DNA of 64,000 bases, from the NCBI GenBank assembly GCA_037349105.1, contig JAYJMM010000065.1, positions 310,001-374,000 of the forward strand, in the 5' to 3' direction. Every line of letters starts with the position of its first letter. Within the stretch, counting starts at the first letter, position 1. Below, one piece after another: positions 1,143 to 62,735 of the stretch. The translations under genes were made by a program, and so were the position numbers. Source of the stretch: Limnomonas spitsbergensis. Taxonomy: Eukaryota > Chlorophyta > Chlorophyceae > Chlamydomonadales. The notes beneath the pieces are model-generated. The model had not been told where the DNA came from and did no database searches. It worked only from the letters and a program-made list of their open reading frames with translations.

Positions 1143-4100
1143 ATGTCAAGGTACCCCTGCCCTTGCATGCCAACAAACTGCTGGTGTCACCTCAAGCCCA
1201 TTCTCCCAGCTCACATCCCCTGCCCCCCCTGCCCTGCCCCCCACGTCCCCCCCCCCTGCTTTACAGCAAAGCGCTATACCCTACACATATTCCTCTCGGC
1301 ACGTTACAGAAAGGAGCTGTTGCTGTATTCTCTGCTGTGGGTGCTCTGCTCAGGTGTGGCTTCAAAGATTCCCCCGCATGATGCCATCCGCCTCACCTGT
1401 CCTGGGAGATTCTCGGTGACCGATTGACTGGGACTGGGACTGGGTACAGACCTGGGGATCAAATGCAACTACCAGTCTTAGAGCTTCCGCCCGCATGATG
1501 CTACGTGTCCCATCAATCCATTGCATGTATGGATGATTGGAAACGAATTCATGGTAAGGGAATGTAAAAGTGAGTAAAAGAGCTTCCGCCCATGTTATGG
1601 TATTCATGGTATTTAGTCTGCCTCCGCCATGATGCCACCCGCCCCATGGGCAGAGTGAGGATGAACACACTATTTAATTCCTGCTTGCTGTAAACGGCAG
1701 CCCTTCAGATGTACTCCTACGCCAGGGGGCAGTGCTAATTTCCGTGCACCAGGTCACCCTTGGCGGGCTGCCGGGCCGCCATTACTGCACCGATCGTGAC
1801 CAAACCTTAAGCTAAACTGCAACCAGCCCTGCAAACTGCAAACTGCCCAGCCCTGCAAACTGCCCTGCTCAGCCCTGCAAACTGCCCTGCCCAGCCCTGT
1901 CCAGCCCAGCCCTGCAAACTGCCCTGCTCAGCCCTGCAAACTGCCCTGCCCAGCCCTGTCCAGCCCAGCCCTGCAAACTGCAAACTGCCCAGCCCTGCAA
2001 ACTGCAAACTGCAACCAACCCTGCAGACTGCAACCGGCCATACGCCATGTTGTACTTACCCAGTAGCTTGAGCACCCTCATGTTCACAAATTGCATTGAA
2101 TCCCTGTTGGTTCTATCGTGAGCCTCGGTGCCCTGTCACTTGTTCATGCATCAACCCAATAGCTTAGCTAACCTACTTGTCTTGTTGTCTTGCTCTTTCG
2201 GAAAACATTTATTTGATGGATTCGTAGAGGTTGTGACTGTTGCCTACAGAGCAGCGCCAGTGGATTCAGTGGCAGCCATGTTAGGACCAATGTTCATTTC
2301 AGTGCGCGACGGACAATCTTTGTGAGGCCGCTAGGCGGCCACCACTGGGCCGATGGGGACAAACCTTGCCAGCCCTACGGCCAGTGGCCCAAGCAGCAAA
2401 AGGTTTGATGCACCCCGTCCCCACGGCCTATGTTAGTGATGTAGCTTAATTGTGGCTGAGTCACACCTAAGTGAGCAGTGGTGTGGATGAGATCACCCAT
2501 TTCTCCCCTCTCACCTCCCAGCCATTCTCCACCCTTTGCTCACCACCCACCCATTGCTCGCCTCCCACCCGTTACCTACCCATTTCTCACCTCCGACCTC
2601 TTTCCCACCCTCTACCTCATTCCCCACCTCCCATCCGTTCTCCACCCTTTGCTCACCACCCACCCATTGCTCGCCTCCCACCCGTTACCTCCCAAGATCT
2701 CCCCCCCCCTTCTCTATCTCAGACCTGGGCGAGGCGACCTCGTCGGTGCAGTTGCCGAGACCACAGGTCTAGGGGCGGTGCGGCAGCTCCGGGACCGCAT
2801 GCGTGCCGACCCTGAGGGACAGCGTATCCTGCTGGAGCGACCCAGGATCACGGTGGGAGGTGGAAGGAGGGAGGAGGAGGAGGAGGAGGGAGGAAGATGC
2901 CAGAGGAAGGGAGGAGGAAGGAGGAAGGAGGGGGGGAGGGAGATGCCAGGGGCAGGGAGAGGGGAGGAGGAAGGAGGGAGGGAGGAAGAAGCAGGTGCAG
3001 GAGGAGGTGGAGGATGGAGGAAGATGTCAGGGGTAGGGAGAAGGGAGGAGGAAGCAAGGAGGTTGAAGGAGGAGCGGAGCGAAGGAAGAGGGAGGACGAT
3101 GCAGTGGGCAGAGAGCAAGGAGGAGGAGGGTTCAGGGGGGACAAGTTGAGGGGAGGAGGGGGAAAGGAGGGGAAGGGAGTATGGAGCAGGGAGGAGGAAC
3201 CAAGGAAGGAAGGAGGAGGGATGATGGGGCAGGGAGAAGGGGGCAGGGAGGAAGGAGCAGGGAGGAAGGAGCAGGGAGGAAGGAGCAGGGAGGAAGGAGC
3301 AGGGAGGAAGGAGCAGGGAGGAAGGAGCAGGGAGGAAGGAGCAGGGAGGAAGGAGCAGGGAGGAAGGAGCAGGGAGGAAGGAGCAGGGAGGAAGGAGCAG
3401 GGAGGAAGGAGCAGGGAGGAAGGAGCAGGGAGGAAGGAGCAGGGCTTGGCCAGGGTATTTTCCTACACATCTCCATGCTTTGCGTCAGCGTTAATGCAAA
3501 AAAAAAGCGGGCTACGGATATTTGGTGTCCAAAATATCCAGCAGGCGAAATCCTAGGTCTTTTATTGGCTGGCATGTTACAGGACGGCTCGCTGTGCCCC
3601 CTGGTTCAAATCCCAGGGCACAGTTTTCAAAGCCCCCCTTCCAGATTGTGGTGAAGGCTGAACCTTTATCCTGATCTTCACATTTCAGATTGTGGTGATG
3701 GCTGAACCTTTGTCCTGATCTTTACATGCCAGATTGTGGTGAAGGCTGAACCTTTATCCTGATCTTCACATTCCAGATTGTGGTGAAGGCTGACCCTTAA
3801 TCCTGATCTTCACATGCGAGCAGCTCCTTCCCATGCGCAGGACCAGTCTGGAATTGACACTGATTGGCCCCTACACATGACTTGAATCCTCTGATCCATG
3901 TGCCCTGATCCCTTCAATCGTGTGTGTTATCTCCTCCCATGCGCAGACCCAGTCCATGCAGAAGTGCTGGGGCATGCCGGTATTGATGCTGATTGGCCCC
4001 TACACATGACTTGAATCCTCTGATCCATGTGCCCTGATCCCTTCAATCGTGTGTGTTCTCTCCTCCCATGCGCAGACCCAGTCCATGCAGAAGTGCTGGG

Positions 4101-7100
4101 GCATGCCGGTATTGATGCTGATTGGCCCCTACACATGACTTGAATCCTCTGATCCATGTGCCCTGATCCCTTCAATCGTGTGTGTTATCTCCTCCCATGC
4201 GCAGACCCAGTCCATGCAGAGGTGCTGGGGCATGCCGGTATTGATGCTGATTGGCCCCTACACATGACTTGAATCCTCTGATCCATGTGCCCTGATCCCT
4301 TCAATCGTGTGTGTTATCTCCTCCCATGCGCAGACCCAGTCCATGCAGAAGTGCTGGGGCATGCCGGTATTGATGCTGATTGGCCCCTACACATGACTTG
4401 AATCCTCTGATCCATGTGCCCTGATCCCTTCAATCGTGTGTGTTCTCTCCTCCCATGTGCAGACCCAGTCCATGCAGAAGTGCTGGGGCATGCCGGAGTC
4501 GACGCTAGGCGGCGCCTACGCGAAGTTCATGGGAGATCGCAACTTCCAAGCAGATGATCGTGCGCCGGTCAGGTGGGCCTAGGGCATGCTCATAGGAGAT
4601 CGAAACTGCCAAGCAGGTGACCTGGCGCCAGTCAGGTGTGTGGACTCTAGCGATCATATCCATGGACACTGGACCACCTTCTGCTGGCAGGGGGGCACTG
4701 GCCAGTGGTCTGAAGGTAGCTGAAATGAAGCTGGCAAATACTGCTGTACTACGAGGTTATTTGAAGTCCTATTTTGAGGTTATGCAGCCCATAGCTCCTC
4801 CCTCCCTCACAAGCCTGCTGTCAGGTTAGTTGACGGTGTAGAGGTAGCCAACTTGCTGATTTTACGTTTAGATAACACTACTAAGGTCAAGCAAATGCTT
4901 CATAACCTTCAGCCTCCGCCACCTATGATTGCACCCTCCCGCGATGGCCACCTGTACGTTTGTGGACCGACCTTCGAGCTGATCTTCAGTTAAGCAACGA
5001 CTCGTCAGGTCCAGCTACCACTCATAATGTTCAGCAGCCGCTAACCAATGACTGCTCCCTTACGCAATTGCAACCTGTAGGTTTGTGGATGATGAGAGTT
5101 GACCTTAGTGCTGATCTTCATTTCAGCTACCCCTATTCAGGTTCAGCTACCACTCTTAATGTTCAGCAGACACTAATTTAATGACTGCGCCATTACACGA
5201 TTGCCGCCTGAAGGTTTGTGGATGATGAGGAGCTGACCTAGGTGCTGATCTTTAATTTAGCTACCAATGTTAAGCGGCCGCTGTCCCATGGCTGCGCCCT
5301 CCTGCGATTGCAACCTGTAGGTTTGTGGATGATGAGGAGCTGGCCTACGTTCTCACGCGCATGAGGGAGGTGCATGATTTCTGGCACGTCCTGTTTGGAT
5401 GCCACACGGATGTGTTCGGCGAACTGGCGATCAAGGGCCTTGAGTTTGTGCAGGTGTGTCGCCTAAAATTGAACCCTAAACTTTAACCCTGAACCCTTAA
5501 CCCCAAACTCAAATCCTAAACTGTAAACCTGAACCCTGAAATGAAACCCTAAACCCTAAACTCGGTGCGTCACAGTGTCTCTTTGATCGGCTTTGATACC
5601 ATCTTCGGTAGGCCTCCCCGCGGCCGCTTCAGGTCTGACTGGGTCAAAACCTTGGCCGGCCAACAGGCACAGGCCCAAACAGCACGGCTGGCAGCACATG
5701 GGCGCTCTGGCAGGCGGTAGCTGAAATGTTGCGCAGCTGTTGCTGAAATGTTGCGTGACTGTAGCTGAGCCTCGAGGAAGAAACGGTGTTATATTTCTCA
5801 GTGCTGTGTTGAGCAGGCAGCAGACGACCTTGGAGACTGGCCAGGCAGCCACTATGCTGGGTCCACGGGGATCAAACGGCGACAGAACTGCGGCCGGGGC
5901 AGGGTAGCAGGGTTAACAGCACCAGGCTCCCCCCGTCCGCAGAACTTGGCGTAGCTGCAATGCGCTGATTATGCCGGTGCCCTTCTCAGGTGCTTTGTTG
6001 CCGTGTTTGTTCTCTTCTAATAAACACTGTCCCCTGCCCCGTGCTCTGCCCAAACCCTGCTCTGCCCGAACCCTGCCCTGTCCTGCCCCCTATCTTGCTC
6101 TGCCATGCACCAATTTCTGCCATGCCTCTTGACCCCTGCCCTGCCAAACCCCTGCCCTGCCCTGACCCCCCCAAAATGAACCCTGCCATGCCCTGCCCTG
6201 CCATGACCCCCCCACACACACATGAACCCTGCCTTGCCCTGACCTGCCCCCCCCCAAAATGAACCCTGTCTTGCCGTTCCATGACCCCCCCCAATGAACC
6301 CTAGCCTTGCCCTGCCCTGCCCCCCGCCCAAATGAACCCTGCCTTGCCCTGCCCTGCGATGAACCCCCCCCACACACACATGAACCCTGCCTTGCCCTGC
6401 CCTGCCCCCCCCTAATGAACCCTTGCCTTGCCTTGCCTTGCCTTGCCCTGCCATGACCCCCCCCCCACACACATGAACCCTGCCTTGCCCTGTCCTGCCT
6501 CCCCCCACAAAATGAACCCTGCCTTGCCCTGCCCCCCCCCAAATGAACACTGTCTTGCCCTGCCATGCCCTGCCCCCCCCCCCACACACACACATTAACC
6601 CTGCCTTGCCCTGCCCTGCCCCCCCCCCCAAATGAACGCTGGCTTGCCCTGCCCTGCCCTGCCTCCCCCCCCCCCACACACACATGAACCCTGCCTTGCC
6701 CTGCCCTGCCCCCGCCCAAATGAACCCTGCCCTGCCATGACCCCTCCACCCCCCACACACAAGAACCCTGCCTTGCCCTGCCATACCATGACCCCCCCCC
6801 CAATGAACCCTTGCCTTGCCTTGCCTTGCCCTGCCCCCCCCCCCCCCGAAAATGAACCCTGCCTTGCCCTGACCTGCCCTAACCCCCCCCCTACACACAC
6901 ACATGAACCCTGCCTTGCCCTGACCTGCCCTAACCCCCCCACACACACATGAACCCTGCCTTGCCCTGACCTGCCCTAACCCCCCCACACACACATGAAC
7001 CCTGCCTTGCCCTGCCCTGCCCTTACCCCCCCACACACACATGAACCCTGCCTTGCCCTGACCTGCCCTAACCCCCCCACACACACATGAACCCTGCCTT

Positions 7101-8483: not shown

Positions 8484-8797
8484 TGACAAATGCGTTGGCA
8501 CCCGTGGGATTTCAAACTCGTACGTCATCTCTGTCACGTCTCATTTCGAAAAGGGTTAGTATCGAAACCCCCGAATGACGCATTTGGTGGGAAGCTGCCC
8601 AGTAGCCTACAGCTTCTGCCTCACAAGAACCCTTGTGTGCCGACGTATCATACCTGAATACACTTTGGGGTCCCTACACATGCCTACGCGTCTTCCCAGG
8701 TCACAATTACCCAAACTTTCCCCTGCTCATTTATTTGTTGTCAACTAGTGCGTCAGGCATTGTAAAAACAAGTTTGTTTACACATCCAGCTACCCAG
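8484..8797. other. Gap between COQ4 and the SpoVS-domain gene
   Basis: About 310 bases between the COQ4 stop and the first exon I can support for the next gene. It should contain the COQ4 3' UTR and the promoter and first exon(s) of the SpoVS gene, but I could not place a start codon. No repeat stands out. Confidence 0.4.
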
Positions 8798-12997: not shown

Positions 12998-15900
12998 ATG
13001 GATTCCGAATTACTAGAAACGTTGACGTCATGGAAGCTCGAGAAATACGCAGAGGGTGAGTTGAGGCTTCTTAGTTGTTGTCCCCGCGTCTTCTTAACAT
13101 GACATATGGAAGCTACGAGCCGCGCGATCAAGAACTGTGAGACTAACGACCTTTCCATCGTAGCTCTGTGCAACAATTTGGGTGTCGCGGAGGCGTCGGA
13201 GCTGAGCATGGTCACGACTGACGACCTTCGAGAAGTTGGCATGACCCGAATCGAGCTCCAGCGTTTCCTCAGATGTCAGGCCCTGCTTCATGGTGAGGCC
13301 ATGGCCGCCATTTGAAATAGCAAGCACGGGCATGGGGCTGCTTGGGGGCTGCATGGGGCACACGCCCTGGCTTGCACGAAGGCATGGACTTGAATGGGGT
13401 TTGTGACGCACATGCATGCTCAAGAGGGTGCTGCCGCCCTGCAATCTACCATGCCAATCGCAGCCCTCTCAGTCCATTTGGGGGTTATATTCTGCCATAC
13501 CGATAGCAGCCTTCACACCCCACGTTGAAAATGAATGTGGGTGGCGAAGGTTGCGATCAAAACAAACTCTCATGCTATGGCAATAGCAACGCTGACAGCC
13601 CAAAATCGAAAGGCAAAGCCTCTTACATTTGTTGGTCTTCAATGTTTCCTCTGCTAGGCACCCCTACACGCGACGCCCTCGGTCCAGCCGGGCTGGCAGA
13701 AAGTCCTCGGTCCAGTCCCCCTGCAGCATCCAACAGCTGGGAGCCGCCGCCGCCGCAGCAGCAGCAGCAGTATAAGCAGCAGCAGGAGAAGCAGCAGCAG
13801 CAGCAACCGCAGGTTACTCATGTGCGCCGTAAAAGCAGCCATAGCATAGCTGCCTCTGTGACGAGCCGCACCTCTTCCCCCACTCGCGGGCTCGCGGCGG
13901 CCGAGGTGGCGGCGCCATCCGCTACCTACCGCTGCCCTGCGAGCGCCTCATCCCCGCCACCACCGGATCCGCGGGATCTGCAGCATGGCGCAATCCTGAT
14001 GCCAGCCTCCCTCCTGCTGGGCGGGGCAAGCAGCAGGGCGGAAGCTAGGCAGCAGCTGGCAGTACCGTACGTGATTGTACCGCCAAACAGCCCCAGATTG
14101 GACAGCTCCCATCATCAGGCAGACTCGCCAGAATTCGGGTCCCGTGGAATGGCCGGCACGTCGGTATCAAGTACGCACTCCCCGCCGCATCAGGCAGCCT
14201 CCCCGCTGCAGCTGCGGCACCTGCAGGTGCTCGGGGACATTGTCCTCAGCGCCGAGGTGCGCCGCTCGGAGCACCGGCAGCATCAGCAGAAGATGGGCAT
14301 GTCTGGGTCATCGGTCAAGTCCGGCGCTTCTTCCGGGGGGCGGAGCCACAGGAACACTCGCAGGGTGAGTGGGAGGGTGGGTGAGTAAGATGGTAAGAGG
14401 GTGAGAGGGAGGGTGAGTGAGTAACAGATAACATGGTAAGAGGGTAAGTGGGAGGGTCAGTGGGGGAGTGAGTGGGAGGTGGAGGGGGGGAGTGTGTGGG
14501 AGGGTGTGTTTGAGGGTGAGTGCGAGGCTGACTGGGAGTGGGAGGATGAGTGTGAGTGTGAATGAGCGGGTGAGGGGGTGGGGGAGTGGAGGAGGTTGGG
14601 ATACGGACAACCCTGTTGGAGTGTAAAGAAACCCAGCTGCATACAGCATGTAGGCATGACATCAAGCGACAGGTATTGGCTGTGGAAAACGCCAAGCAGC
14701 ATGCCAGAGGCCAGGAGATAGCTGAAGTGTAACTGAAGTGCAGCTGAGATGTGGCTGGATTGTGGCTGAATGGTAGCTACGACAAAATGAACACTGCTCC
14801 CCCAATGCTCTGCATGTTGAGTATTTTAACCCTTAGTCCTAAACCCTTTACCTTGCGGGTTTAGTCTAAGCCCTAAACCCTAAGCCCTCAACGTTGCAGG
14901 ATGATTCTAAACCCTCAACACTAGGACATTTACATTGCAGGATGATTCTTAACCCTAAGCCCCAAACCCATAACCCTAGTACCCTACAGGATGAGTCTTA
15001 AACCTTTACCCTAAACCTTTTACCTTGCGGGATGAGTTTAAACCCTAAACCACAAACCCTAAATCCTGTAGGATGAGTCAACCTCTGCCGGAACCTCTGC
15101 CAGCCCTCGTAACGTGTACTTTGTGGTCCCTCGGAGCCTCCAGCAACAACCGCAACAACACCTTGAACCAGAGCTGTTGCAGCAACAACATGGCGGGCCT
15201 GGATCTGAACTGAAGCAACAGCCATATGAGCAGTACGAGCAGCAACAGCAGCGGTACGAACTGCAAAAGCAACAGCAGCAACAACAGCTACAACAACAGC
15301 AGTTACAGCAGCAGCAACTGCAACAACAGCAGCAACAGGAGCGGTACAAGCTCCAGCTCCAGTACGACCGGGCCGCCTCCTCGTCTCCAGCTGCCAACCC
15401 CGCCTTCGATCAAACTGCCGGCCTGCACACGCAGGTGCGACCCCCGGCTGCCACTGCACTGTCGAATCAAACTGCTGCCTGGTACTCAGCGTCGCCGTCA
15501 TCTCCAGAGAGAGAAATGAAAGGAGGGGGAGTGGGAGGAGGCGAAGGAGGGATTCTTACAGATAAGTTGCATGGCTCTGGCGTGGCTGTAGCTCCCGCCG
15601 CCGCCGCCGCCTGTGCTGCCAGGCCAGTCCAAGGCAGGACGTGGCGTCACCAAGGTTGGAGGACCTTCAGCAGCAGCAGCAGCAGTGGTAGTAGCGAGGA
15701 TGAGCGTCCCTCACGCTGCGGTGGATCTAGATCTCGGGGCAGAAAGGAGAATCCGGGGCACGCCACGGATGTGAGGCAACCTGTTGCTGCAACAGCAGCA
15801 GCAACGGCGGCGGCGGCCGCAGCGGCGGCGTTGGCGGCAGCTTCAGCAGTTGCGGCGGCAGCGGCTGAGGTGGTGGTGAGGCTGAGAGCCGAGCAAGAAG

Positions 15901-41930: not shown

Positions 41931-42076
41931 GGTGATTGAGAGCGAAATTGAACTCGAGTTCGATACGAGGGCGGAGAGCAACTTAAGATGTCGCTAAAAT
42001 GATTTGAAATATGGGAGGGGGAGATATGACAACGGACACTGCATGCGACAGTCGGCACGACATTTGATAGGTCCTA

Positions 42077-42084
42077 CTTATATA
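42077..42084 (-). promoter_or_regulatory. Possible TATA box for the - strand repeat-protein gene
   Basis: On the - strand the sequence reads AATATATAAGTAGG, with TATATAAG at 42084-42077. It lies about 150 bp before the proposed ATG at 41930, a reasonable distance for a TATA element plus 5' UTR. Confidence 0.4.
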
Positions 42085-42099
42085 TTACCGAGGAGGGAG

Positions 42100-47619: not shown

Positions 47620-47857
47620 CTGGTCACACCTCGTCGGACGCAGGCCGCAAGTTGAGTACCAGGAATGTTCGCCTTTCCCGCGCCCAAAACCTCACTTTGC
47701 ATCATCAAAAGTACCTCGAATTCGAATCTAGGTGGCTACAGCAGGCTCTAGCCACGCCCTGATCTACTGTGAACTTTCGGCCATGAAGGCATCTGGTTGG
47801 CCCGTGGCTTTGCTAGGCTGCATCGTGTAGCCTGGGTGTCACAAGCCCCGACCAGTC

Positions 47858-50800: not shown

Positions 50801-53800
50801 CTTAACCCTTCACCCTGAACCCTTGGTATGTTGCAGCTACAAATGGCCCTGTCAAAGTACCTGCCCTAGGGGATCACTGCCACATGAACCAGCCGCACCG
50901 TCACACCTTAACCCTTCACCCTGAACCCTTGGTATGTTGCAGCTACAAATGGCCCTGTCAAACGACCGGCCCTAGGGGAGCACCGCCACATGAACCAGCC
51001 GCACCGTCACACCTTAACCCTACACCCTGAACCCTTGGTATGTTGCAGCTACAAATGGCCCTGTCAAAGTACCTGCCCTAGGGGAGCTCCGCCACATGAA
51101 CCAGCCGCACCGTCACACCTAAACCCTACACCCTGAACCCTTGGTATGTTGCAGCTACAAATGGCCCTGTCAAACGACCGGCCCTAGGGGAGCACCGCCA
51201 CATGAACCAGCCGCGGCAGGAGCCTGTGGCCTCGGCCAAGAAGTCGGCCGGGCCTGGATTCTTCTTCCCAAGGAAGGGGCTGCTGGGGATACTCGTTATG
51301 GACCCTGCACCCATCACAAGGTGGGTGGGGGAATCTTCGTGTAGTGTTCTCGGCTCTGTTGCATATTTGCTCGTCAAGTAAACTTCAGCCTCCAGCTGGA
51401 GGCCCCAGGTGTGGTCAGCCATGCAGCCGGGCCCGCGTTCTTTCTCCCAAGCAAGGCGCAGCTGGGAATTCTCTTAATGGACCCCGCAAATCATCACCAG
51501 GTGGGTGGGGGGGACGTTTGCATTTTTCTCTGTTGCATATTTGCACGTCAACCAAACTTTGGTCTCCGGCAAGAGGCCCCGGGTGTGGCCAGCCATGCCG
51601 CTAAGCCTGCGTTCTTCCTCCTAAACATGGGAATGCTGGGATCCTCATAACGGACCCCACACCCATCACCAGGTGGGTGGGGGGACCATTCACCATTGTA
51701 TCTTTATTCTTGACTCAGCTGCGTATCAGCTACATTCCAGCCTCTGGATGGAGGCCCCGATGTCACCAGCCATGCCGCTGGGCCTGTGATGGGGCTGCTG
51801 GGGTGCTCGTTATGGACCCCTCGCCCATTTCCAGGTATTGGGTGGGTGAATCATTGTATATTTCTTCTTGACTCTGCTGCATGTCAACTACACTTTGACC
51901 TCCGGCTGGAGGCCCAAAGTTTAGCCAGCCATGCAGCCAGCTGGAGGCCCCAGGTGTGGCCAGCCATGTTGCTGGGCCCGTGTTCTTCCTCACAAACATA
52001 GGGATGCTCGGTTCCTCGTAATGGACTACGCCTCCATTACTGGGTGGGTTCATTCACCCCTGAATGATGGCCATGGACTTCCTGTGGACATGCTTTGCCA
52101 TCCCTCGCTCTTCATGTTGTTCAGGGGTGAGGGATACGCAACAAAAAGGACATCAATGACCAACGCCAGCTTTCTGTAGGGAACGTAGAATTCTTGCTGA
52201 CCTTTCGCTGCCAGGGAGTCAGGGCAGTAGTGAAAGAAAACAATATTATGAACACTAGGGACAACCATTGAAATCTATGGTACCGGTAATTGAAGCAGGA
52301 GGTAAGTATTGCAGTAATTACTTATAACCATGATAGCTCTGCACACACTGACGGAGGTGGATAGAGCAGTGCTGTGTTTTTTTGCTGTGGCTACGGTAGG
52401 GTTCAGGGGGACAAGGGGGACTGGAGGAGGGAGGCAGCATGGAGCAGACATCAATGCCGTGTCTACTGAATGTCTGTACTTCTTGAACTGAACTCATTGG
52501 TGGTTTCAGACACTCTGACGTTGTCAGATGGGGCTGTTGTTCTTAACATGTGTTACACGACTGCTTCTGACTGCATGTCCTCCTTTTACTTTATGTACTG
52601 CTTGTACTTCACTCACAGGTGGTTCCGGACACTCTGGCGTTGTCAGATCGGGCTGTTGTTCTTAACATGTGTTACATGGCGGCTTCTGACTGCATGCACT
52701 CTTTGCACTTCCCTCGAAGGTGGTTCCGGACGCACCGGCGTAATCAGATCGGGCTGTTGTTCCTGGCATGTGTAGCGACAGGCCTGGTGATCGGTGACGC
52801 CATCTTGATGCCAGCCTTCTCAGGTGGGATTGACCCAACCGTTTACCCTAAACCCCAACCTAGGTGGATTAGAGCCAACCATTGACCCTAAACCCTAAAC
52901 TAAGCGGGTTGGAGCCAACCATTGACCCTAAACCCTAAACAAAGCGGGTTGGAGCCAACCATTGACCCTAAACCCTAACCTAAGCGGGTTGGAGCCAGCC
53001 ATTGACCCTAAACCCTAAACAAAGCGGGTTGGAGCCAGCCATTGACCCTAAACCCTAACCTAGGTGGATTAGAGCCAGCCATTGACCCTTAACCCTAAAC
53101 TAAGCGGGTTGGAGCCAACCATTGCGCCTAAACCCTAAACTAAGCGGGTTGGAGCCAGCCATTGACCCTAAACCCTAAACTAAGCGGGTTGGAGCCAACC
53201 ATTGACCCTAAACCCTAAACTAAGCGGGTTGGAGCCAACCATTGACCCTAAACCCTAAACTAAGCGGGTTGGAGCCAACCATTGACCCTAAACCCTAAAC
53301 TAAGCGGGTTGGAGCCAACCATTGACCCTAAACCCTAAACTAAGCGGGTTGGAGCCAACCATTGACCCTAAACCCTAAACTAAGCGGGTTGGAGCCAACC
53401 ATTGACCCTAAACCCTAAACTAAGCGGGTTGGAGCCAACCATTGACCCTAAACCCTAAACTAAGCGGGTTGGAGCCAACCATTGACCCTAAACCCTAAAC
53501 TAAGGGGGTTGGAGCCAACCATTGACCCTAAACCCTAAACTAAGCGGTTTGGAGCCAACCATTGACCCTAAACCCTAAACTAAGCGGGTTGGAGCCAACC
53601 ATTGACCCTAAAAACGAGGCCCCAGGTGTGGCCTGCCAGGCTGCTTAGGCCGCCAGCATTGGGCCAGTCCAGGTTAGGCACAAATCATGACTTAAGCGGC
53701 CGTAGAAAAGGGCGGCCGGCCAGTGGTGGCTTTGTGATCGGTAACGCCATCTTGATGCCAGCCTTCTCAGGTGGGATAAGGCAAACAGGAAGAATACGGG

Positions 53801-56800
53801 TAATGTCGTTAATCAATGAAGTTGAACCAGAAGTAACAAAAAGTGCGCCGCACTGGGGTGTGAAGGCGTATTGTTTTCACACAGAGGACTCATGTTTGTT
53901 TCAGTGGCTGAAAGCCTTCCAACCAACCATGTACCCTGATCGATCATAAAAGTGGCTGAAAGTGGCTGAAAGATCTCCAACCAACCATGTACCCTGGTAT
54001 ATCATAGACCTTAAAACGGGGCCCCAGATGTGGCCTGCCAGGCTGCTTAGGCCGCCGGCCAAAGGCCAGTCCAGGTCCAGGTCCACAAATCATGCTTTTG
54101 CGGCCGTGGGGCGACCGGCCAAGGGTGGCTTCGTTATCGGTGATGCCATCTTGATGCCAGCCTCCTCTGTAAGAAGTACGTGTGCTTTCCAATCCGCTGG
54201 GTGGCCTGCCGAAGGTTAACATGAAGCCGGAAGACAAAACACTGCTCTGCTGTATCTAACCACCTCCTACTGGCCCTTGCTCTTCCTTGCCTATTTCAGT
54301 GAACTCTGCCATATCTGGCATCAGAGACAATGCCAGCACGCACATCTCCAGAAGTGAGTTTTTGCTTAGTGTGTGAGGTTAGCATGGTAGCACAATCCGA
54401 CTGAACCTGTGCCGGATCGTGCGGTATCGTGGCTTTTTGATAGTTTAATCCGGCTATTGCGCCGTATCATGTCGTATCGTGCTATTAGGGAGCTTAGGCC
54501 AGAGTGGGGTCATGACTCTGACCAGGCCTACACTGAATGAGTCGAGGTAGAAGATGTCAGGGCTCCACCTCATAGACCTGATGGGTGGGGTGATGACTCC
54601 GACCACTCGACCAGGTCTACACTAAATGAGGTGAGGTAGCAGCTGTTAGGGCTCCACCTCAATAGACCTGATAGGTGGGTGATGACTCTGACCTGGCCGC
54701 CCTCGGCTTATTGTAGCTTTGCTCCAACTCGCACGCTGACCTTCGAGGTCCATTTCCGAGGCACGTTCAATTCACGATCTGTAAATTGGTACTGCAATGC
54801 CGTCGTGAGGTGCAGAGTTTTTTCTTCTTCAACATTTGAAATTAATAAAAAAATGTCTGAGGTGTGAGAATTGTGGACGGCGCGGCGAAGCCGCGCGGGG
54901 GGGATGCAGGGGGGGTCCTATATTGTGGACGGCGGGGGGGGATGCAGGGGGGGTCCTATATTGTGGATGGCGGGGGGGATGCAGGGGGGGTCCTATATTG
55001 TGGACGGCGGGGGGGATGCAGGGGGGGTCCTATATTGTGGGCGGCGGGGGGGATGCAGGGGGGGTCCTATACTGTGGGCGGCGGGGGGGATGCAGGGGGG
55101 GTCCTATATTTTGCGGTCGTCGCCTACCACCATCGCCCTCGACCACCGACTGCCTACCCGGCCACTGCCCTGGTACAATCAATTTTTTCTACATAATGGT
55201 ACTGGTATATCACAAATGAGTGCAGTAATTACAAATAGAAGGACCACGGTAATCACCCCTGCGTATGTAGGGCAGGGCACGCGCATGATTCCTGGATAAA
55301 CAGCTTTCCTGAACATCCCCTGTCTCTCTTTCCGCCTTTCTCTTCCCTAAACATCCCCCGCCCCTCTCCCCGCCTTTCTTCATCTCCCCACAGACGCCAT
55401 CATTGGCATCTCAGTCAGCATCATTGTGGTGCTATTTATCCTGCAACATGTGGGCACGCGTAAGATTGCGTGGCTCTTCACACCCATCGTGATCCTCTGG
55501 CTCATCGCCAACTTCTCGATTGGGATCTACAACATGGCAACGTACGGCTCAGCCATTTTTGAGGTATGGCGCGGGCATCTTTGAGGTACGGGGCCTCATT
55601 TTGTGCTTCTTGCTGACCCTATGCCTCTCCCTCCTATGACTCTGTCCAGGGTCTGAGCCCGTATTACATCTACCTCTTCTTCTACAACCACGGAGCCCTG
55701 GCCTGGGAGGCACTGAGTGGTGTCATGCTTTGCGTGTCAGGGACGGAAACCATGTTTGCAGCCATGGGCCACTTCTCGCAGCCGTCCATTGCGGTGCGTG
55801 TGGGCAGTAGGGGGTGGATGTGGTATTGATGGCGTCATGCTCTGTGTGTGGCTGGAATGAAATTGATGGTTGCGGCCATGGGCCACTTCTCGCAGCCGTC
55901 CATTGCGGTGCGTGTGGGCAGCAGGGGGTGGATGTCGTATTGATGGCGTCATGCTCTGTGTGTGGCTGGAATGAAAATGATGTTTGCAGCCATGGGCCAC
56001 TTCTCGCAGCCGTCCATTGCGGTGCGTGTTGGCAGTAGGGGGTGGATGTTGTATTGATGGCGTCATGCTCTGTGTGTGGCTGGAATGAAAATGATGTTTG
56101 CAGCCATGGGCTGCTTCTCGCTGCCATCCAAAGCAGTGTGTGGGGGGGAGCGGGGGGGGGATACCTCAAATTTGCGTTTGTCAAATGCTTTGGAATGCTG
56201 CCTCTAAATCCTGATGTCGTGACCACAGCCCTACGCCCACAGCCCTACACCCACAGCCCTAAACCCGCAGCCCTACACCCACAGGCCTAAATTCACAGCC
56301 CTAAACCCAAAGCCCTAAATGCAAAGCCATAAATTCACAGCCCTAAACCTGCAGCCCTTAAGCCACAGCCTTAAACCTGCAGACATAAACCCGCAGACAT
56401 AAACCCGCAGACATAAACCCGCAGACATAAACCCGCAGACATAAACCCGCAGACATAAACCCACAGACATAAACCCGCAGACATAAACCCGCAGACATTA
56501 ACCCGCAGACATAAACCCGCAGACATAAACCCGCCGACATAAACCCGCCGACATAAACCCACAGACATAAACCCGCAGACATAAACCCGCCGACATACAC
56601 CCGCAGACATAAACCCGCAGACATAAACCCGCAGACATAAACCCGCAGACATAAACCCGCAGACATAAACCCGCAGACATAAACCTGCAGACATAAACCC
56701 GCAGACATAAACCCGCAGACATAAACCCGCAGACATAAACCCGCAGACATAAACCTGCAGCCATAAACCCACAGACATAAACCCGCAGACATTAACCCGC

Positions 56801-59800
56801 AGACATAAACCCGCAGACATAAACCCGCAGACATAAACCCGCAGACATACACCTGCAGACATAAACCCACAGACATAAACCCGCAGACATAAACCCGCAG
56901 ACATAAACCCGCAGACATAAACCCACAGACATAAACCCGCAGACAGAAACCCGCAGACATAAACGCGCAGACATAAACCCGCAGACATAAACCCGCAGAC
57001 ATAAACCCGCAGACATAAACCCGCAGACATAAACCCGCAGACATAAACCCGCAGACATAAACTCGCAGACATAAACCCGCAGACATGAACCTGCAGACAT
57101 AAACCGGCAGACATAAACCCGCAGACATAAACCCGCAGACATAAACCCGCAGACATAAACCTGCAGACATAAACCCGCAGACATAAACCCGCAGACATTA
57201 ACCCGCAGACATAAACCCGCAGACATACACCTGCAGACATAAACCCACAGACATAAACCCGCAGACATAAACCCGCAGACATAAACCCGCAGACATAAAC
57301 CCACAGACATAAACCCGCAGACATAAACCCGCAGACATAAACGCGCAGACATAAACCCGCAGACATAAACCCGCAGACATAAACCCGCAGACATAAACCC
57401 GCAGACATAAACCCGCAGACATAAACCCGCAGACATAAACCCGCAGACATAAACCCGCAGACATAAACCCACAGACATAAACCCGCAGACATAAACCCGC
57501 AGACATAAACCTGCAGACATAAACCCGCAGACATAAACCCGCAGACATAAACCCGCAGACATAAACCCGCAGACATTAACCCGCAGACATAAACCCGCAG
57601 ACATAAACCTGCAGACATAAACCCGCAGACATAAACCCGCAGACATAAACCTACAGACATAAACCCGCAGACATGAACCTGCAGACATAAACCCACAGAC
57701 ATAAACCCGCAGACATAAACCCGCAGACATAAACCTGCAGCCATAAACCCACAGACATAAACCTGCAGACATAAACCCGCAGACATAAACCCGCAGACAT
57801 AAACCCGCAGACATAAACCCACAGACATAAACCCGCAGACATAACCCCACAGACATAAAGCCGCAGACATAAACCCGCAGACATAAACCCGCAGACATAA
57901 ACCCACAGACATAAACCCGCAGACATAAACCCGCAGACATAAACCCGCAGACATAAACCCGCAGACATAAACCCGCAGACATAAACCCGCAGACATAAAC
58001 CCGCAGACATAAACCCGCAGACATAAACCCGCAGACATAAACCCGCAGACATAAACCCGCAGACATAAACCCGCAGACATAAACCCACAGACATAAACCC
58101 GCAGACATAAACGCGCAGACATAAACCCGCCGACATAAACCCGCAGACATAAACCCGCAGACATAAACCGGCAGACATAAACCCGCAGACATAAACCCGC
58201 AGACATAAACCCGCAGACATAAACCTGCAGACATAAACCCGCAGACATAAACCCGCAGACATAAACCCACAGACATAAACCCGCAGACATGAACCTGCAG
58301 ACATAAACCCACAGACATAAACCCGCAGACATAAACCCGCAGACATAAACCTGCAGACATAAACCCGCAGACATAAACCCGCAGACATAAATGCGCAGAC
58401 CATAACTCACAGCCCTAAATCCGCAGCCCTGAACCCGAAGCCCTGAACCCGAAGCCCTGAACCCGTAGTCCTAAACCTAGCCCTAAACACGCAGACCCTA
58501 ACCCGCAGCCCTAAACCCGCAGCCCTTAACCCACAGCCCTTAACCCGCAGCCCTAAATCCGCAGCCCTGAACCCGCAGCCCTAAACCCGCAGCCCTAAAT
58601 CCGCTGCCCTGAACCCACGGTACTTAACCCAAAGCCCTAAATCTGCTGCCTTAAACCCTCTTGTCCTTGGCCACCACCACGACCACCCTAAACCCTGAGT
58701 CCTCTTGCTGTCACCATCTGTCGGCCCCCCTGCGCCCTTCTTGACCCTCCATCCGCGCGCTATTCTTGACCCTCCATCCCCGTGCTCTTCTTCACCCTCC
58801 ACCCCTGCACTCCCCGCAGATTGCGTTTGGTCTGTTTGCCTACCCATGCATCGTCACGGCGTACCTGGGTCAAGGGGCCTACTTGCTGAAGAATCCCCAG
58901 GTGCGCGTTATGAATAATAATAGTAATGTGGGACGTTAACCCTAAACCCTGTGTCACCGCGTACCTGGGTCAAGGGGCCTACTTGCTGAAAAAGCCCCAG
59001 GTGCGCGTTATGAATAATAATAGTAATGTGGGACGTTAACCCTATACCCTGTGTCACCGCGTACCTGGGTCAAGGGGCCCACTTGCTGAAAAAGCCCCAG
59101 GTGCGCGTTATGAATAATAATAGTAATGTGGGACGTTAACCCTAAACCCTGTGTCACCGCGTACCTGGGTCAAGGGGCCTACTTGCTGAAAAAGCCCCAG
59201 GTGCGCGTTATGAATAATAATAGTAATGTGGGACGTTAACCCTAAACCCTGTGTCACCGCGTACCTGGGTCAAGGGGCCCACTTGCTGAAAAAGCCCCAG
59301 GTGCGCGTTATGAATAATAATAGTAATGTGGGACGTTAACCCTAAACCCTGTGTCACCGCGTACCTGGGTCAAGGGGCCTACTTGCTGAAAAAGCCCCAG
59401 GTGCGCGTTATGAATAATAATAGTAATGTGGGACGTTAACCCTAAACCCTGTGTCACCGCGTACCTGGCTCAAGGGACCTACTTGCTGAAAAAGCCCCAG
59501 GTGCGCGTTATGAATAATAATAGTAATGTGGGACGTTAACCCTAAACCCTGTGTCACCGCGTACCTGGCTCAAGGGACCTACTTGCTGAAAAAGCCCCAG
59601 GTGCGCGTTATGAATAATAATAGTAATGTGGGACGTTAACCCTAAACCCTGTGTCACCGCGTACCTGGCTCAAGGGACCTACTTGCTGAAAAAGCCCCAG
59701 GTGCGCGTTATGAATAATAATAGTAATGTGGGACGTTAACCCTAAACCCTGTGTCACCGCGTACCTGGCTCAAGGGACCTACTTGCTGAAAAAGCCCCAG

Positions 59801-62735
59801 GTGCGCGTTATGAATAATAATAGTAATGTGGGACGTTAACCCTAAACCCTGTGTCACCGCGTACCTGGGTCAAGGGGCCTACTTGCTGAAAAAGCCCCAG
59901 GTGCGTAGAAACAGTGAAGGTTAAACCCAAACCTTAAATCTCAGGCGTGCTATCTAGATGAAGGTGGGCCCTGAACCCTAGGGGCCCTTAATCTCTGCCG
60001 CCGATCTACTGGCCCATGATGTTGCTTTCCACGCTTGCTATCAGTGCCATGTAATATAAACGGCACGTTTCCCCGCAGGATGTTGAGACCCTCCTTCTGG
60101 TCAGCTCTGCTGTAGCCAATGAGTTGAACTTAAGTCATGGTGCTAGCCACCTCTCAAAATCTGATATTTCCACTAGGCTCGGCCCTTGACTCGGCTCTTT
60201 GCACAACACAAGGCTCTTACTTTTTCAGCATCTGACTTCCATCGACCATTTCCCCCCTAACTGACGAACGTGAGACTACTGTCTTAAGAGCAGCTTTGCT
60301 GTAGCCGATCTATTGAAGTCAGATGGTGCAGGCCACCTCCTGTTTCTAAAATCTGGTTATTCCGACCTACCTGCAGGATGTGGAGACTATCTTCTGGGCA
60401 GCTCTGCCAGAGCCCATCTATTGGCCCATGATGGTCCTGGCCACGCTGGCTGCGAGTGTGGCCAGCCAGGCCGTCATTACAGGCACCTTCTCCATTCTAC
60501 GACAGGTGATAAGGGAACGAGGGAGGTGATGAAGATAAAGGGGGGGAAGGAGGGGAGATGGCCCCTATCGTTTCTTGGAGGTGCACATCTTCATCCCCCT
60601 CCCCCTATTCCCCCTACCATACATACAGATAAGCAGGTGGAGGGGCAGATGATCACCCCCCTCTCCCTTCCCCTATCATACTTTTGGAGGGGGCAGGTGC
60701 TGATCCCCCTCCTGCCTCCCCTTCCCACTTACACTATTATGCAGTCCATGTCATTGGGCGTGTTCCTAAAGTTGCGGATCATTCATACGGACAAGCAGGT
60801 GGAGGGGCAGATCTTCATCCAACTCCCCCTCACTATCATTCAATTGGCAAGCAGGGACTCATCCCCTTCCTACCTCCTCCCTTATCCTCCAGTCCATGTC
60901 CTTGGGCATCTTCCCCAAGCTGCGGATCATTCATACAGACAAGCAAGTGGAGGGACAGATCTTCATTCCCGTTGTCAACTACATGCTCATGGTGCTGTGT
61001 GTGGCGGTCATTGCGGGCTTCGGCGGCGACAACATCCACATCGGAAACGCTTATGGTGTGGGCTGCTTGTGATAAGGGGCGGGAGGTGTGTGTTCAAGTG
61101 TGTGACGGTCATGGCGGGCACAGCATCAATATTGGAAACGCGAATGGTGCGGTCTTTGGGGGTGACACCATGCACATTGAAAACGCTGACGATCAGGGAA
61201 CTGGGCGCCGGTCGGCCACCGACGCCAGAAAAAAAGTCTGGAAAAAAACCGACCACTCCGGAACCCTGACTTTGGCGCCAGCCAGCCGATGCCGAAATGC
61301 TATTTTTAGGCCACCTTTTTGCCATCGGCAGGTAGTCAGAATCATGTATTTGTCCTGGACAGTTGGACCCCGGTGTGACGTTCGTGACTTTCGTGGAAAA
61401 AAATGAAATCCGGCTTTTGACGTTTGACACTTGTTCACACTGCACGAAAGAATAACGATAAAAACAGCCGACCGGAAAATAACACCTGGAAAAAAAGGGT
61501 GGTCGGCGTCAACCGATCTTTCTGAAAAGGCCCCCCAGGACCCTGCTGACGATATGAGGTTTTTGGTCTGTTTGCATACCGCCATTTGCATACGGGTGTA
61601 TCACATACAGCATTACTAATTACGCCTACATGATACAAACGCTCATGATCAGGTCTTCACATGCAATGTGGGGGGTAGGGTGCGATGGGGGAGGGGCTTC
61701 TGTCGCGCACATGCACCCTACAAACGGTCATCATTTTATCCCCTGGACCCTAACCCCTACAAGCTATTCAGTGTCAACGTTTCATTTCCCGAGCCCTATA
61801 AACTGTTCACACTTTATCCCCTGAACCCTAACCCCTAAAGGCTATTCAGTGTCAACATTTCGTCCCCCGAGCCCTATAAACTGTTCACACTTTATCCCCT
61901 GAACCCTAACCCCTAAAGGCTATTCAGTGTCAACATTTCGTCCCCCGAGCCCTATAAACTGTTCACACTTTATCCCCTGAACCCTAACCCCTAAAGGCTA
62001 TTCAGTGTCAACATTTCGTCCCCCGAGCCCTATAAACTGTTCACACTTTATCCCCTGAACCCTAACCCCTAAAGGCTATTCAGTGTCAACATTTCGTCCC
62101 CCGAGCCCTATAAACTGTTCACACTTTATCCCCTGAACCCTAACCCCTAAAGGCTATTCAGTGTCAACATTTCGTCCCCCGAGCCCTATAAACTGTTCAC
62201 ACTTTATCCCCTGAACCCTAACCCCTAAAGGCTATTCAGTGTCAACATTTCGTCCCCCGAGCCCTATAAACTGTTCACACTTTATCCCCTGAACCCTAAC
62301 CCCTAAAGGCTATTCAGTGTCAACGTTTCGTCCCCCGAGCCCTATAAACTGTTCACACTTTATCCCCTGAACCCTAACCCCTAAAGGCTATTCAGTGTCA
62401 ACGTTTCGTCCCCCGAGCCCTATAAACTGTTCACGTTTTATCCCCTGAACTCTCAACCATGTAAACCGTGAACCCTATATAAACCCTTAACCCTGTAAAT
62501 TGTGATTCCTAAAAAAACTCAACTCTACAAGCCGTCAACCCTTTCTTCTCTTCCCCCTGTATCCCCTGAACCCCCCACCCCAGGTGTTGCCGTGATGATG
62601 GTGATGCTGATCACCACCATGCTGGTCTCCCTCATCATGCTGGTCAAGTGGCGGATCAGCCTGTTGTTCATCCTCCCCTTCTTCATGTTCTTCTCGTTCA
62701 TTGAGGCCAGCTTCTTATCAGCAAATCTCTATAAG
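47858..62735 (+). CDS. KUP/HAK/KT-family potassium transporter, thirteen exons, 3' end not resolved
   Basis: This plasma-membrane-type K+ uptake permease matches the KUP family throughout. Exons: 47858-47998, 48091-48147, 48230-48425, 48815-48919, 51155-51320, 52720-52823, 54300-54353, 55394-55563, 55650-55793, 58820-58900, 60377-60505, 60893-61055 and 62584-62735. They sum to 1662 nt (554 codons) with consistent phase. The N-terminus is Lys-rich ([14 protein letters not shown]), then TM1 with [12 protein letters not shown], then [19 protein letters not shown]. Later come [80 protein letters not shown] and [20 protein letters not shown]. It is divergent: the usual GDIGTSPLY has I for P, and the usual A-D-hydrophobic-GHF has A for D, but GD, GEGG and the E of GTE are kept. 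Exon 5 encodes a loop absent from bacterial relatives ([14 protein letters not shown]). The last TM segment and C-terminal domain are not found. Confidence 0.9.
48945..49470 (+). repeat. Echoes of KUP exon 4 and its donor, then GGAGGA-rich DNA
   Basis: Exon 4 ends CAGGTCCTCAACATGAAGAG before TGGTGAGTGTGGGGC. Partial copies follow at about 48955-49025, 49075-49130 (CACGTCCTCAACATGAAGTG, then TGGCGAGTGTGGGGC) and 49195-49265 (TTTGGGACTCTTTGCTGGTA). After these lie two GGAGGAGGAGGAG-rich blocks around a duplicated TTGATTC-containing segment. Confidence 0.8.
49815..51154 (+). repeat. Array of KUP exon 5 acceptor plus exon start, 106-bp units
   Basis: The true exon 5 starts at 51155 (TTGCAG, then CTACAAATGGCCCTGTCAAA). 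The same acceptor and about 75 exon bases (to CATGAACCAGCCGC) recur at 50201, 50307, 50413, 50519, 50625, 50731, 50837, 50943 and 51049, exactly 106 bp apart. They are joined by CCTTAACCCTTCACCCTGAA. More diverged copies begin at about 50072, 49963 and 49817. Confidence 0.96.
51321..52060 (+). repeat. Four echoes of KUP exon 5 3' end with donor
   Basis: Exon 5 ends ATGGACCCTGCACCCATCAC plus AAG before GTGGGTGGGG. Copies end at about 51500 (CATCACCAGGTGGGTGGGGG), 51672, 51834 and 52040 (TTACTGGGTGGGTT). Each is preceded by GTGTGGCCAGCCATGCxGC, a piece of the dispersed family, so echo and mobile element have become one composite unit. Confidence 0.85.
52490..52719 (+). repeat. Two echoes of KUP exon 6 acceptor and 5' end
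   Basis: Exon 6 begins at 52720 with GTGGTTCCGGACGCACCGGC. Copies occur at about 52619 (GTGGTTCCGGACACTCTGGC) and 52498 (GTGGTTTCAGACACTCTGAC), both continuing GGGCTGTTGTTCTTAACATG. The farther copy is the more diverged. Confidence 0.9.
52840..53610 (+). repeat. 40-bp array with CCCTAAACCCTAAAC after KUP exon 6
   Basis: About 18-19 copies of CTAAGCGGGTTGGAGCCAAC plus CATTGACCCTAAACCCTAAA. The array grows out of the donor region: the first intron bases GTGGGATTGACCCAACC and TACCCTAAACCCCAACC are a diverged first unit. The middle copies are identical. Confidence 0.93.
53700..54180 (+). repeat. Copies of KUP exon 6 3' end fused to dispersed-repeat sequence
   Basis: At about 53725 and 54125 the intron repeats GTGATCGGTAACGCCATCTT and GTTATCGGTGATGCCATCTT, then GATGCCAGCC as in exon 6. 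The first copy still ends TTCTCAG before GTGGGAT. Each is preceded by GGCCCCAGxTGTGGCCTGCC from the dispersed family. Confidence 0.85.
54490..55115. repeat. About 110-bp repeats and a 36-bp G-rich array, KUP intron 7
   Basis: From about 54500 to 54700 two and a half units contain CAGGGCTCCACCTCATAGAC and GGTGATGACTCTGACC. From about 54890 to 55115 six units of GGATGCAGGGGGGGTCCTAT plus ATTGTGGACGGCGGGG form a G-rich array. Confidence 0.85.
55794..56145 (+). repeat. Three echoes of KUP exon 9 3' end with donor, about 122 bp apart
   Basis: Exon 9 ends CATGGGCCACTTCTCGCAGC plus CGTCCATTGCG before GTGCGTGT. The same run, with the preceding GTCATGCTxTGTGTG, recurs ending at about 55914, 56030 and 56140. 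The last copy is degraded (TGGGCTGCTTCTCGCTGCCA). Confidence 0.92.
56225..58680. repeat. 14-bp satellite AGACATAAACCCGC with CCCTAAA-rich flanks
   Basis: From about 56385 to 58400 the unit AGACATAAACCCGC repeats roughly 144 times with few changes (CCGC, CTGC, CCAC). Flanks (56225-56380 and 58400-58680) hold ACAGCCCTAAACCCGCAGCC variants, evidently the ancestral unit. The 679-aa and 522-aa open frames on the - strand are artefacts. Confidence 0.95.
58901..59905 (+). repeat. 100-bp array of KUP exon 10 3' end plus donor, ten copies
   Basis: Units begin at 58951 and every 100 bp to 59851 with GTGTCACCGCGTACCTGGGT. Each carries the exon 10 end (CAAGGGGCCTACTTGCTGAA, then AAAGCCCCAG) and donor GTGCGCGTTATGAATAAT, then GGGACGTTAACCCTAAACCC. 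Copies read [14 protein letters not shown] or variants ([28 protein letters not shown]), against [14 protein letters not shown] in the true exon. Confidence 0.96.
59995..60345 (+). repeat. Diverged echoes of KUP exon 11 5' end
   Basis: Exon 11 starts at 60377 with GATGTGGAGACTATCTTCTG. Related pieces lie at about 60001 (CCGATCTACTGGCCCATGAT), 60079 (CAGGATGTTGAGACCCTCCT) and 60288 (GAGCAGCTTTGCTGTAGCCG). All have frame-breaking changes. Confidence 0.75.
60610..60835 (+). repeat. Echoes of KUP exon 12 acceptor and 5' end
   Basis: Exon 12 starts at 60893 (CCAG, then TCCATGTCCTTGGGCATCTT). About 153 bp upstream, at 60740, the intron reads GCAGTCCATGTCATTGGGCG and continues to ATCATTCATACGGACAAGCA. 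A shorter, older piece with CAGATAAGCAGGTGGAGGGG lies at about 60629. Confidence 0.88.
61740..62450. repeat. 78-bp array, about nine copies, KUP intron 12
   Basis: The unit combines GTTCACACTTTATCCCCTGA, ACCCTAACCCCTAAAGGCTA, TTCAGTGTCAACATTTCGTC and CCCCGAGCCCTATAAACT. Copies from 61805 onwards are 78 bp apart and almost identical. Confidence 0.95.

What the first reader, a model, noticed from the sequence alone, without database searches (positions are those of the whole stretch)
1143..62735. Introns are filled with echoes of their own splice junctions
In COQ4, the SAM-LRR gene, the small 144-aa gene and KUP, most intronic repeats can be traced to the adjacent exon boundary. They are either acceptor plus exon start (COQ4 exons 4 and 5; SAM-LRR exons 4, 6 and 8; KUP exons 5, 6, 11 and 12) or exon end plus donor (SAM-LRR exons 4, 5, 7 and 8; small-gene exons 4 and 6; KUP exons 4, 5, 6, 9 and 10). 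This is seen directly at more than fifteen junctions. Intron gain by duplication of AGGT-containing sequence is known, but systematic intron growth by repeated duplication across existing junctions is not something I know as a described system.
Basis: partly seen in the sequence, partly recalled or inferred. Interest (0 to 1): 0.88.

Follow-up and report, generated by a model that had tools for sequence, protein, structure and literature searches.

The report
Introns growing by random tandem duplication
In this green alga, introns carry many copies of the edges of their own neighbouring exons, most likely because short stretches of about 110 bases are duplicated more or less at random and survive whenever the protein is left intact, so introns collect decoy splice sites.

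Summary
The echoes are real, local, and not confined to the window. Of 198 splice junctions in 99 introns (window plus 13 chaperonin loci of the same genome), 43 have a junction-spanning copy in their own intron; three controls gave 0, 0 and 1 of 198. Two claims fail. 'Most' repeats do not trace to an exon edge: 29% of tandem-array bases in the window introns lie in arrays holding exon-derived sequence. And junctions are not shown to be special: the echo rate is 0.12-0.26 in the intron, 0.21-0.22 at the junction, 0-0.01 at 80-100 bases into the exon. Among young copies exon edges equal interiors (donor 5/67 v 5.5/67, acceptor 8/67 v 5.5/67). Old copies are in excess at acceptors (12/67 v 4.2/67, 2.8-fold); a no-targeting simulation gives 1.35-1.46-fold. 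Echoes match their own exon over the paralogue's at 142 v 43 diagnostic sites, so most postdate the paralogue splits or were homogenised since. Best reading: recurrent 80-140 bp tandem duplication filtered by splicing; a vivid variant of a known process. Genome most likely Limnomonas spitsbergensis.

The parts
1143..8483 (+). COQ4 gene, 7 exons: 1143-1150, 1267-1353, 2723-2852, 4463-4572, 5321-5453, 7703-7861, 8343-8483
   Evidence: continuous open frame; Pfam Coq4 E 5e-84; 70% identical to a Chlamydomonas sp. UWO 241 protein
3853..4496 (+). 129-bp tandem array, five units; four intronic copies of acceptor plus start of COQ4 exon 4, the last unit being the real exon start at 4463
   Evidence: TRF; junction string found 5 times in the genome, all here
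5069..5320 (+). degenerate copies (exon-start copies at 5081 and 5214) of the acceptor plus start of COQ4 exon 5
13030..28622 (+). SAM/LRR gene, modelled in two parts (exons from 13030, 13164, 13658, 15072, 17613; and 25893, 27281, 27963)
16571..16594 (+). echo of end of LRR exon 4 plus donor (source junction 16373)
   Evidence: 22/24
26111..26216 (+). echo of exon end plus donor (source junction 26051)
   Evidence: 21/24
27728..27799 (+). echo of exon end plus donor (source junction 27667)
   Evidence: 85% over 95 bp; not found
30413..35691 (+). Flattop (CFAP126) gene, 144 aa, 7 exons
   Evidence: open frame; Pfam CFAP126 E 1e-14
32491..32660 (+). echoes of Flattop exon 4 end plus donor, within a 30-bp array
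   Evidence: 5 matches, best 76%; not found
34861..35169 (+). three echoes of Flattop exon 6 end plus donor
48091..62735 (+). KUP potassium transporter, 12 exons seen; both gene ends lie outside this list
   Evidence: open frame; Pfam K_trans E 4e-131
49047..49130 (+). echo of KUP exon end plus donor (source junction 48919)
49928..51154 (+). 106-bp array, 11 intronic copies of acceptor plus first 60 bases of the KUP exon at 51155
   Evidence: 12 genome matches including the real one, all here; the eight nearest intronic copies 93-98% identical, the three farthest 79-88%
51354..51684 (+). echoes of KUP exon end plus donor (source junction 51320)
52475..52696 (+). 119-bp copies of acceptor plus start of the KUP exon at 52720
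53727..53778 (+). echo of KUP exon end plus donor (source junction 52823)
   Evidence: 20/24; not found
55752..56130 (+). 114-bp array of KUP exon end plus donor (first copy is the real junction 55793)
58853..59905 (+). 100-bp array of KUP exon end plus donor (first copy is the real junction 58900)
60067..60334 (+). degenerate copies of acceptor plus start of the KUP exon at 60377
   Evidence: 17/24; not found
60735..60835 (+). copy of acceptor plus start of the KUP exon at 60893
   Evidence: 82% over 105 bp
61112..61155 (+). weak echo of KUP exon end plus donor (source junction 61055)

Best explanation
Short head-to-tail duplications, typically 80-140 bp, arise again and again at positions for which no clear preference could be shown within genes of this alga. 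Those wholly inside an exon change the protein and are lost; those inside an intron are neutral; those that straddle a splice junction are also tolerated, because the copy that stays joined to the rest of the exon is still spliced correctly and the other copy becomes intron. Some duplications then expand into arrays by unequal exchange or slippage, and all decay. Because the exon is conserved, old copies stay recognisable against it longer, so a reader sees junction echoes more readily than equally old echoes between two intronic copies. Shown: the copies, the local origin of two of them, the flat profile of young copies, the length window, the lineage specificity. Inferred: the mutational step (repair of staggered breaks or template slippage) and the tolerance by splicing.
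For: 43 of 198 junctions v 0, 0 and 1 of 198 in controls. One-sided echo rate 0.21-0.22 at junctions, 0.12-0.26 in the intron, 0-0.01 at 80-100 bases into the exon, i.e. within about one unit length. Young copies (identity 0.88 or more, unit 70-170 bp): donor edge 5/67 v mean interior 5.5/67, acceptor edge 8/67 v 5.5/67, P 1.0 and 0.78. A simulation with uniform duplication and an exon filter gives edge-to-interior ratios of 1.1-1.3 for young and 1.35-1.46 for old copies without any targeting (a smaller first run was noisier). Echoes match their own exon at 142 paralogue-differing sites, the other paralogue at 43, neither at 26; the pairs differ by K 0.33-0.69 at 4-fold sites. The two junction sequences searched occur only in their own gene. 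Splicing filter: units under 70 bp are seen at 0 of 67 acceptor exon edges against 8 of 67 at +30 and at +60 in the intron (P 0.006); at donor edges 2 of 67 (P 0.10). Acceptor copies carry at least 33 intronic bases (median 60), donor copies as few as 4.
Against: Old copies are in excess at edges: acceptor 12/67 v 4.2/67 (P 0.06), donor 8/67 v 3.8/67 (P 0.37), chaperonin acceptors 10/48 v 1/48 (P 0.008). The simulation gives only about 1.4-fold, so a modest acceptor hot spot is not excluded. Edge and interior points come from the same introns, so these P values are rough. Units of 80-140 bp dominate at junctions while the interior is bimodal, so two processes may be mixed. The sample is 105 introns from one gene family plus one window, and paralogues are not independent. 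No transcript was read; correct splicing is inferred from open frames and homology.
Confidence: 0.72

Rival explanations
1. Junction-directed duplication: splicing, transcription or R-loops at exon edges provoke breaks there, so introns grow from their ends.
For: Acceptor exon edges carry more 70-170 bp copies than interiors in chaperonins (0.285 v 0.06-0.09 of points); old chaperonin copies 10/48 v 1/48, more than the simulation gives; junction units have a tight length range (median 114).
Against: No significant excess among young copies; donors flat; exon share of the unit spreads from 0.09 to 0.67 rather than clustering at the splice site; window genes show no excess.
Confidence: 0.16
2. 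Selected decoys: the copies are kept because redundant splice sites help or regulate splicing.
For: Decoys keep AG in 15 of 21 and GT in 18 of 22 nearest copies; one 108-bp acceptor unit is present in both members of a paralogue pair with 85% intron identity over 123 bases.
Against: Use of the nearest decoy would shift the frame or bring a stop in 33 of 35 cases that could be phased; echoes decay and are mostly lineage-specific.
Confidence: 0.06
3. Assembly or polishing artefact in repeats.
For: The assembly was built from PacBio CLR reads and polished in several rounds; no raw reads were seen here.
Against: Copies differ and are more divergent far from the exon in one array, carry paralogue-specific bases, and arrays are far shorter than the 33-kb read L50.
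Confidence: 0.03
4. Introner-like mobile introns or remnants of intron gain by tandem duplication of AGGT exonic sequence.
For: Tandem duplication is described as a genuine route of intron gain (passages of PMC3443670).
Against: The two junction sequences searched are found only in their own gene; copies hold exon plus intron flank inside an existing intron whose position is shared by both paralogues in 25 of 25 modelled pairs, partly by construction of the models.
Confidence: 0.03

Closest known systems
Intron gain by tandem genomic duplication (AGGT model; reviewed in PMC3443670, passages read, which cites Gao and Lynch 2009 and Hellsten 2011, not read; potato RdRp case PMC4974935, search listing only)
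   Same: Short tandem duplication inside a gene, rescued by the spliceosome so that the protein is unchanged
   Different: There a new intron is made from exon sequence; here an existing intron is lengthened and its own junction is copied
Satellite DNA and intronic minisatellites of Chlamydomonadales (satellites as tandem repeats in passages of PMC8226300; the intronic case is recalled, not from a call)
   Same: Head-to-tail arrays of local origin
   Different: Here a quarter of the intronic array bases lie in arrays that hold exon-derived sequence and often copy a splice site
Tetrahymena 90-bp-exon LRR arrays (abstract and passages of PMC6564038)
   Same: Exon-intron units repeated in tandem within a gene
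   Different: There whole exons are repeated and translated; here partial exon edges with one splice site, apparently unused
Novel intron positions by intron sliding or tandem duplication in Drosophila (passages of PMC2891723)
   Same: Local duplication interacting with splice sites
   Different: Intron position does not move here

Membership tests
Intron gain by tandem genomic duplication | Duplicated segment is exonic and its two copies of AGGT become the new donor and acceptor | tested here: not met
   copies hold exon edge plus adjoining intron, inside an intron that already exists
Intron gain by tandem genomic duplication | Intron absent from relatives at that position | tested here: inconclusive
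   25 of 25 modelled intron positions shared by paralogues, partly by construction; no other species available
Introner elements | Same intron sequence dispersed at many loci | tested here: not met
   2 of the junction sequences searched over the genome: 5 and 12 matches, all in the own gene; the others not searched
Whole-exon tandem duplication | Copy carries both splice sites and can be spliced as an exon | tested here: not met
   nearest copies hold 8-102 exon bases next to one junction
Intronic minisatellite expansion | Local head-to-tail copies of one unit | tested here: met
   TRF arrays in step with the junction; many echoes are single copies rather than arrays
Intronic minisatellite expansion | Placement without regard to exon edges | tested here: inconclusive
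   young copies flat; old acceptor copies in excess in chaperonins, only partly explained

The most novel reading that the evidence does not exclude
Acceptor-proximal exon starts are a genuine hot spot for roughly 110-bp tandem duplication, perhaps tied to co-transcriptional splicing, and this lineage's long introns are largely built by it; the resulting arrays of intact decoy 3' splice sites are ignored through a strict exon-definition rule.
Probability: 0.15. Interest if true: 0.82.

Novelty: new variant of a known kind. Interest (0 to 1): 0.5.

Why it matters
It shows in one genome how introns can lengthen and turn over by ordinary tandem duplication with the exon acting as a filter, and it supplies natural test constructs (11 decoy acceptors, eight of them 93-98% identical and each with some 60 exon bases, in front of one real exon) for asking how a spliceosome picks the right one of many near-equal sites. 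It also warns that exon-edge matches overstate junction-specific processes, because conserved exons keep old copies recognisable.

Tried and rejected
Junction targeting was tested with position profiles by unit length and identity and rejected as the main explanation for young copies; the profile without classes hid the old-copy acceptor excess, which I report. Frame-preserving unit lengths: offsets fall 15, 12 and 16 on residues 0, 1 and 2 mod 3, no bias. Uniform exon share of units was rejected against a 0.08-0.85 uniform (P 0.0025), because units that are mostly exon are missing; I read that as the splicing filter. KUP paralogues (PF02705), kinesins (PF00225) and proteasome subunits (PF00227) as further samples did not complete. 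Paper searches for a prior description of junction-spanning intron growth; no title listed there describes it, but several lists were cut short and most subscription journals are absent from that library.

Rows dropped: introns L010_314 and L010_2748 as poorly supported; 6 of 105 introns under 120 bp from the junction tests; introns under 300 or 400 bp from the class profiles; exon-hit gaps without a model. Not modelled: the gene at 8.8-11.6 kb, the LRR stretch 17.8-25.9 kb, the rest of the window, and L002. Splice sites placed or moved by hand: L009 intron 2, L012 intron 7, L013 intron 1, L014 and L015 introns 2 and 3; Flattop exon 6 end. The window models were built from exon strings that I picked by eye.

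Full report
What the window is. The window lies in an assembly of 260,226,709 bases in 124 contigs. The genome paper of the Arctic snow alga Limnomonas spitsbergensis reports 260,248,090 bp in 124 contigs (PMC11228838: abstract, passages, and the first of two parts of the results section), and the nearest named COQ4 relatives are Chlamydomonadales (70% identity to Chlamydomonas sp. UWO 241). The identification is very likely but rests on size, contig number and kinship. What I read of that paper gives a mean intron length of 788 bp and 22.78% unclassified repeats, and does not mention exon-edge copies in introns.

Checking the observation. I built gene models whose exons join in one open frame: COQ4 (7 exons), KUP (12 exons), the 144-aa gene, which Pfam calls Flattop/CFAP126, and two unlinked parts of the LRR gene. 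With 24-base probes laid across each of 58 junctions, 12 match their own intron at 20-24 bases, and no probe exceeds 17 in the other introns tested. With a local alignment test, 17 of 50 window junctions (25 introns of at least 120 bp) have a copy spanning the junction by at least 8 bases on both sides.

Is it genome-wide? A Pfam chaperonin search of the own genome gave 76 exon hits. I fetched 13 loci and placed introns from the hits, the reading frame and splice consensus; six of the loci form three paralogue pairs. In all, 105 introns were modelled and the 99 of at least 120 bp tested. 43 of 198 junctions have a junction-spanning copy in the own intron (window 17 of 50, other chaperonins 5 of 48, paralogue set 21 of 100); none of 198 did in the reverse complement and none of 198 in another gene's intron. 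A second method, comparing each sequence with itself along diagonals, also gave 43 of 198 (not all the same ones), against 1 of 198 with the intron reversed. The effect is weaker in the seven unpaired chaperonin loci than in the window. Introns with such a copy tend to be longer: 2 of 19 under 300 bp, 8 of 31 at 300-600, 15 of 25 at 600-1000, 14 of 24 above 1000, though longer introns also offer more room.

Is the junction special? I measured, at points from 100 bases inside the exon to 200 inside the intron, how often the sequence around the point recurs in the same intron on the intron side. The rate is 0.12-0.26 at points up to 200 bases into the intron, 0.22 at donors and 0.21 at acceptors, and 0-0.01 at 80-100 bases into the exon; at acceptors it is 0.24-0.28 at 10-40 bases into the exon. 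Within the 70-170 bp unit class, donors are flat, but acceptor exon edges are above the interior (0.278 v 0.13-0.17 of points). Split by identity, copies of 88% or more are about as common inside as at the edge (acceptor 8/67 v 5.5/67, P 0.78; donor 5/67 v 5.5/67, P 1.0; chaperonins alone 5/48 v 2/48 and 3/48 v 2/48), while older ones are in excess at the edge (acceptor 12/67 v 4.2/67, P 0.06; donor 8/67 v 3.8/67, P 0.37; chaperonin acceptors alone 10/48 v 1/48, P 0.008). A conserved exon changes slowly, so a pair of exon and intron copy diverges more slowly than two intron copies and stays visible longer. In a simulation of random duplication with an exon filter and no targeting, edge-to-interior ratios were 1.1-1.3 for young and 1.35-1.46 for old copies in three settings of 1634-1724 introns. 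The young data fit; the old acceptor data (2.8-fold, small counts) lie above. I reject junction targeting as the main cause and leave a modest acceptor effect open.

What the filter does. Units shorter than 70 bp occur in the intron (8 of 67 introns at +30 and 8 of 67 at +60 upstream of the acceptor) but at none of 67 acceptor exon edges (P 0.006); at donor edges they are 2 of 67 against 8 of 67 at +60 (P 0.10). Acceptor-spanning units carry 33-123 intronic bases (median 60), donor-spanning ones from 4 up. This fits a rule that an acceptor copy is tolerated only if each copy has its own branch point and pyrimidine tract; branch points were not mapped, so this is inference. Nearest copies keep AG in 15 of 21 and GT in 18 of 22 cases. 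Using the nearest copy would shift the frame (23) or bring an in-frame stop (10) in 33 of 35 cases that could be phased, so the true site must be preferred or the wrong products be discarded.

When did they arise? The three paralogue pairs differ at 45%, 26.5% and 43.5% of 4-fold sites (K 0.69, 0.33, 0.65). In 15 of 25 intron pairs no alignment at E 1e-4 is found, including introns 2, 3, 6 and 7 of the youngest pair, whose neutral sites should still align. At positions where the paralogous exons differ, echoes agree with their own exon 142 times, with the other paralogue's 43 times, with neither 26 times. Most echoes are therefore younger than the splits, or were homogenised since; a few (for example L009 exon 3 acceptor, 4 own v 5 other) look older. 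Searching by similarity to the own exon biases this count somewhat towards own.

Local origin. The COQ4 junction string was found 5 times in the genome with up to 2 mismatches, all at its own junction and intron. The KUP acceptor unit gave 12 matches, all in KUP intron 3 and its junction; the eight intronic copies nearest the exon are 93-98% identical, the three farthest 79-88%. The other junctions were not searched genome-wide.

How much of the intron is echo. Tandem arrays make up 47% of the window's modelled intron bases and 30% over all 105 introns; 29% and 25% of those array bases lie in arrays that hold exon-derived bases; exon-derived bases themselves are 10% and 7% of intron. So most intronic repeats are not traced to exon edges.

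Verdict. The finding describes something real and striking, but its cause is most simply indiscriminate tandem duplication with a survival filter. Tandem duplication as a source of new introns is in print (passages of PMC3443670); lengthening of existing introns across their own junctions at this frequency I did not find in the searches named under Tried and rejected. I class it as a new variant of a known kind.

Noticed in passing
105 modelled introns, window and L003-L015: Telomere-like CCCTAAA occurs 97 times in the sense strand of introns and its reverse complement 4 times (20 introns v 4). The other orientation would bring TTTAG acceptor-like strings, so splicing may select orientation.
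   Followed up: partly
38570-40528 (minus) and 40542-40916 (minus): ORFs of 652 and 124 aa with tandem arrays of 120, 126, 51 and 45 bp units, all multiples of three, no Pfam match: perhaps the in-frame, exonic counterpart of the same duplications.
   Followed up: partly
L008 5433-5667 and L009 6012-6816 (gene-strand coordinates): Last 123 bases of intron 7 are 85% identical between paralogues (45% of 4-fold sites differ gene-wide, 12 of 33 in the next exon) and hold the same 108-bp acceptor echo, each resembling its own exon: gene conversion or constraint.
   Followed up: partly
45762-46841 (+): ORF with a weak RNase H match below the Pfam cut-off (E 5.6e-4), perhaps a retroelement fragment.
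   Followed up: no
L003 4091-6611 (gene-strand coordinates): A chaperonin intron with 42-51 matches of an 83-bp-spaced unit that includes the exon end and donor.
   Followed up: no
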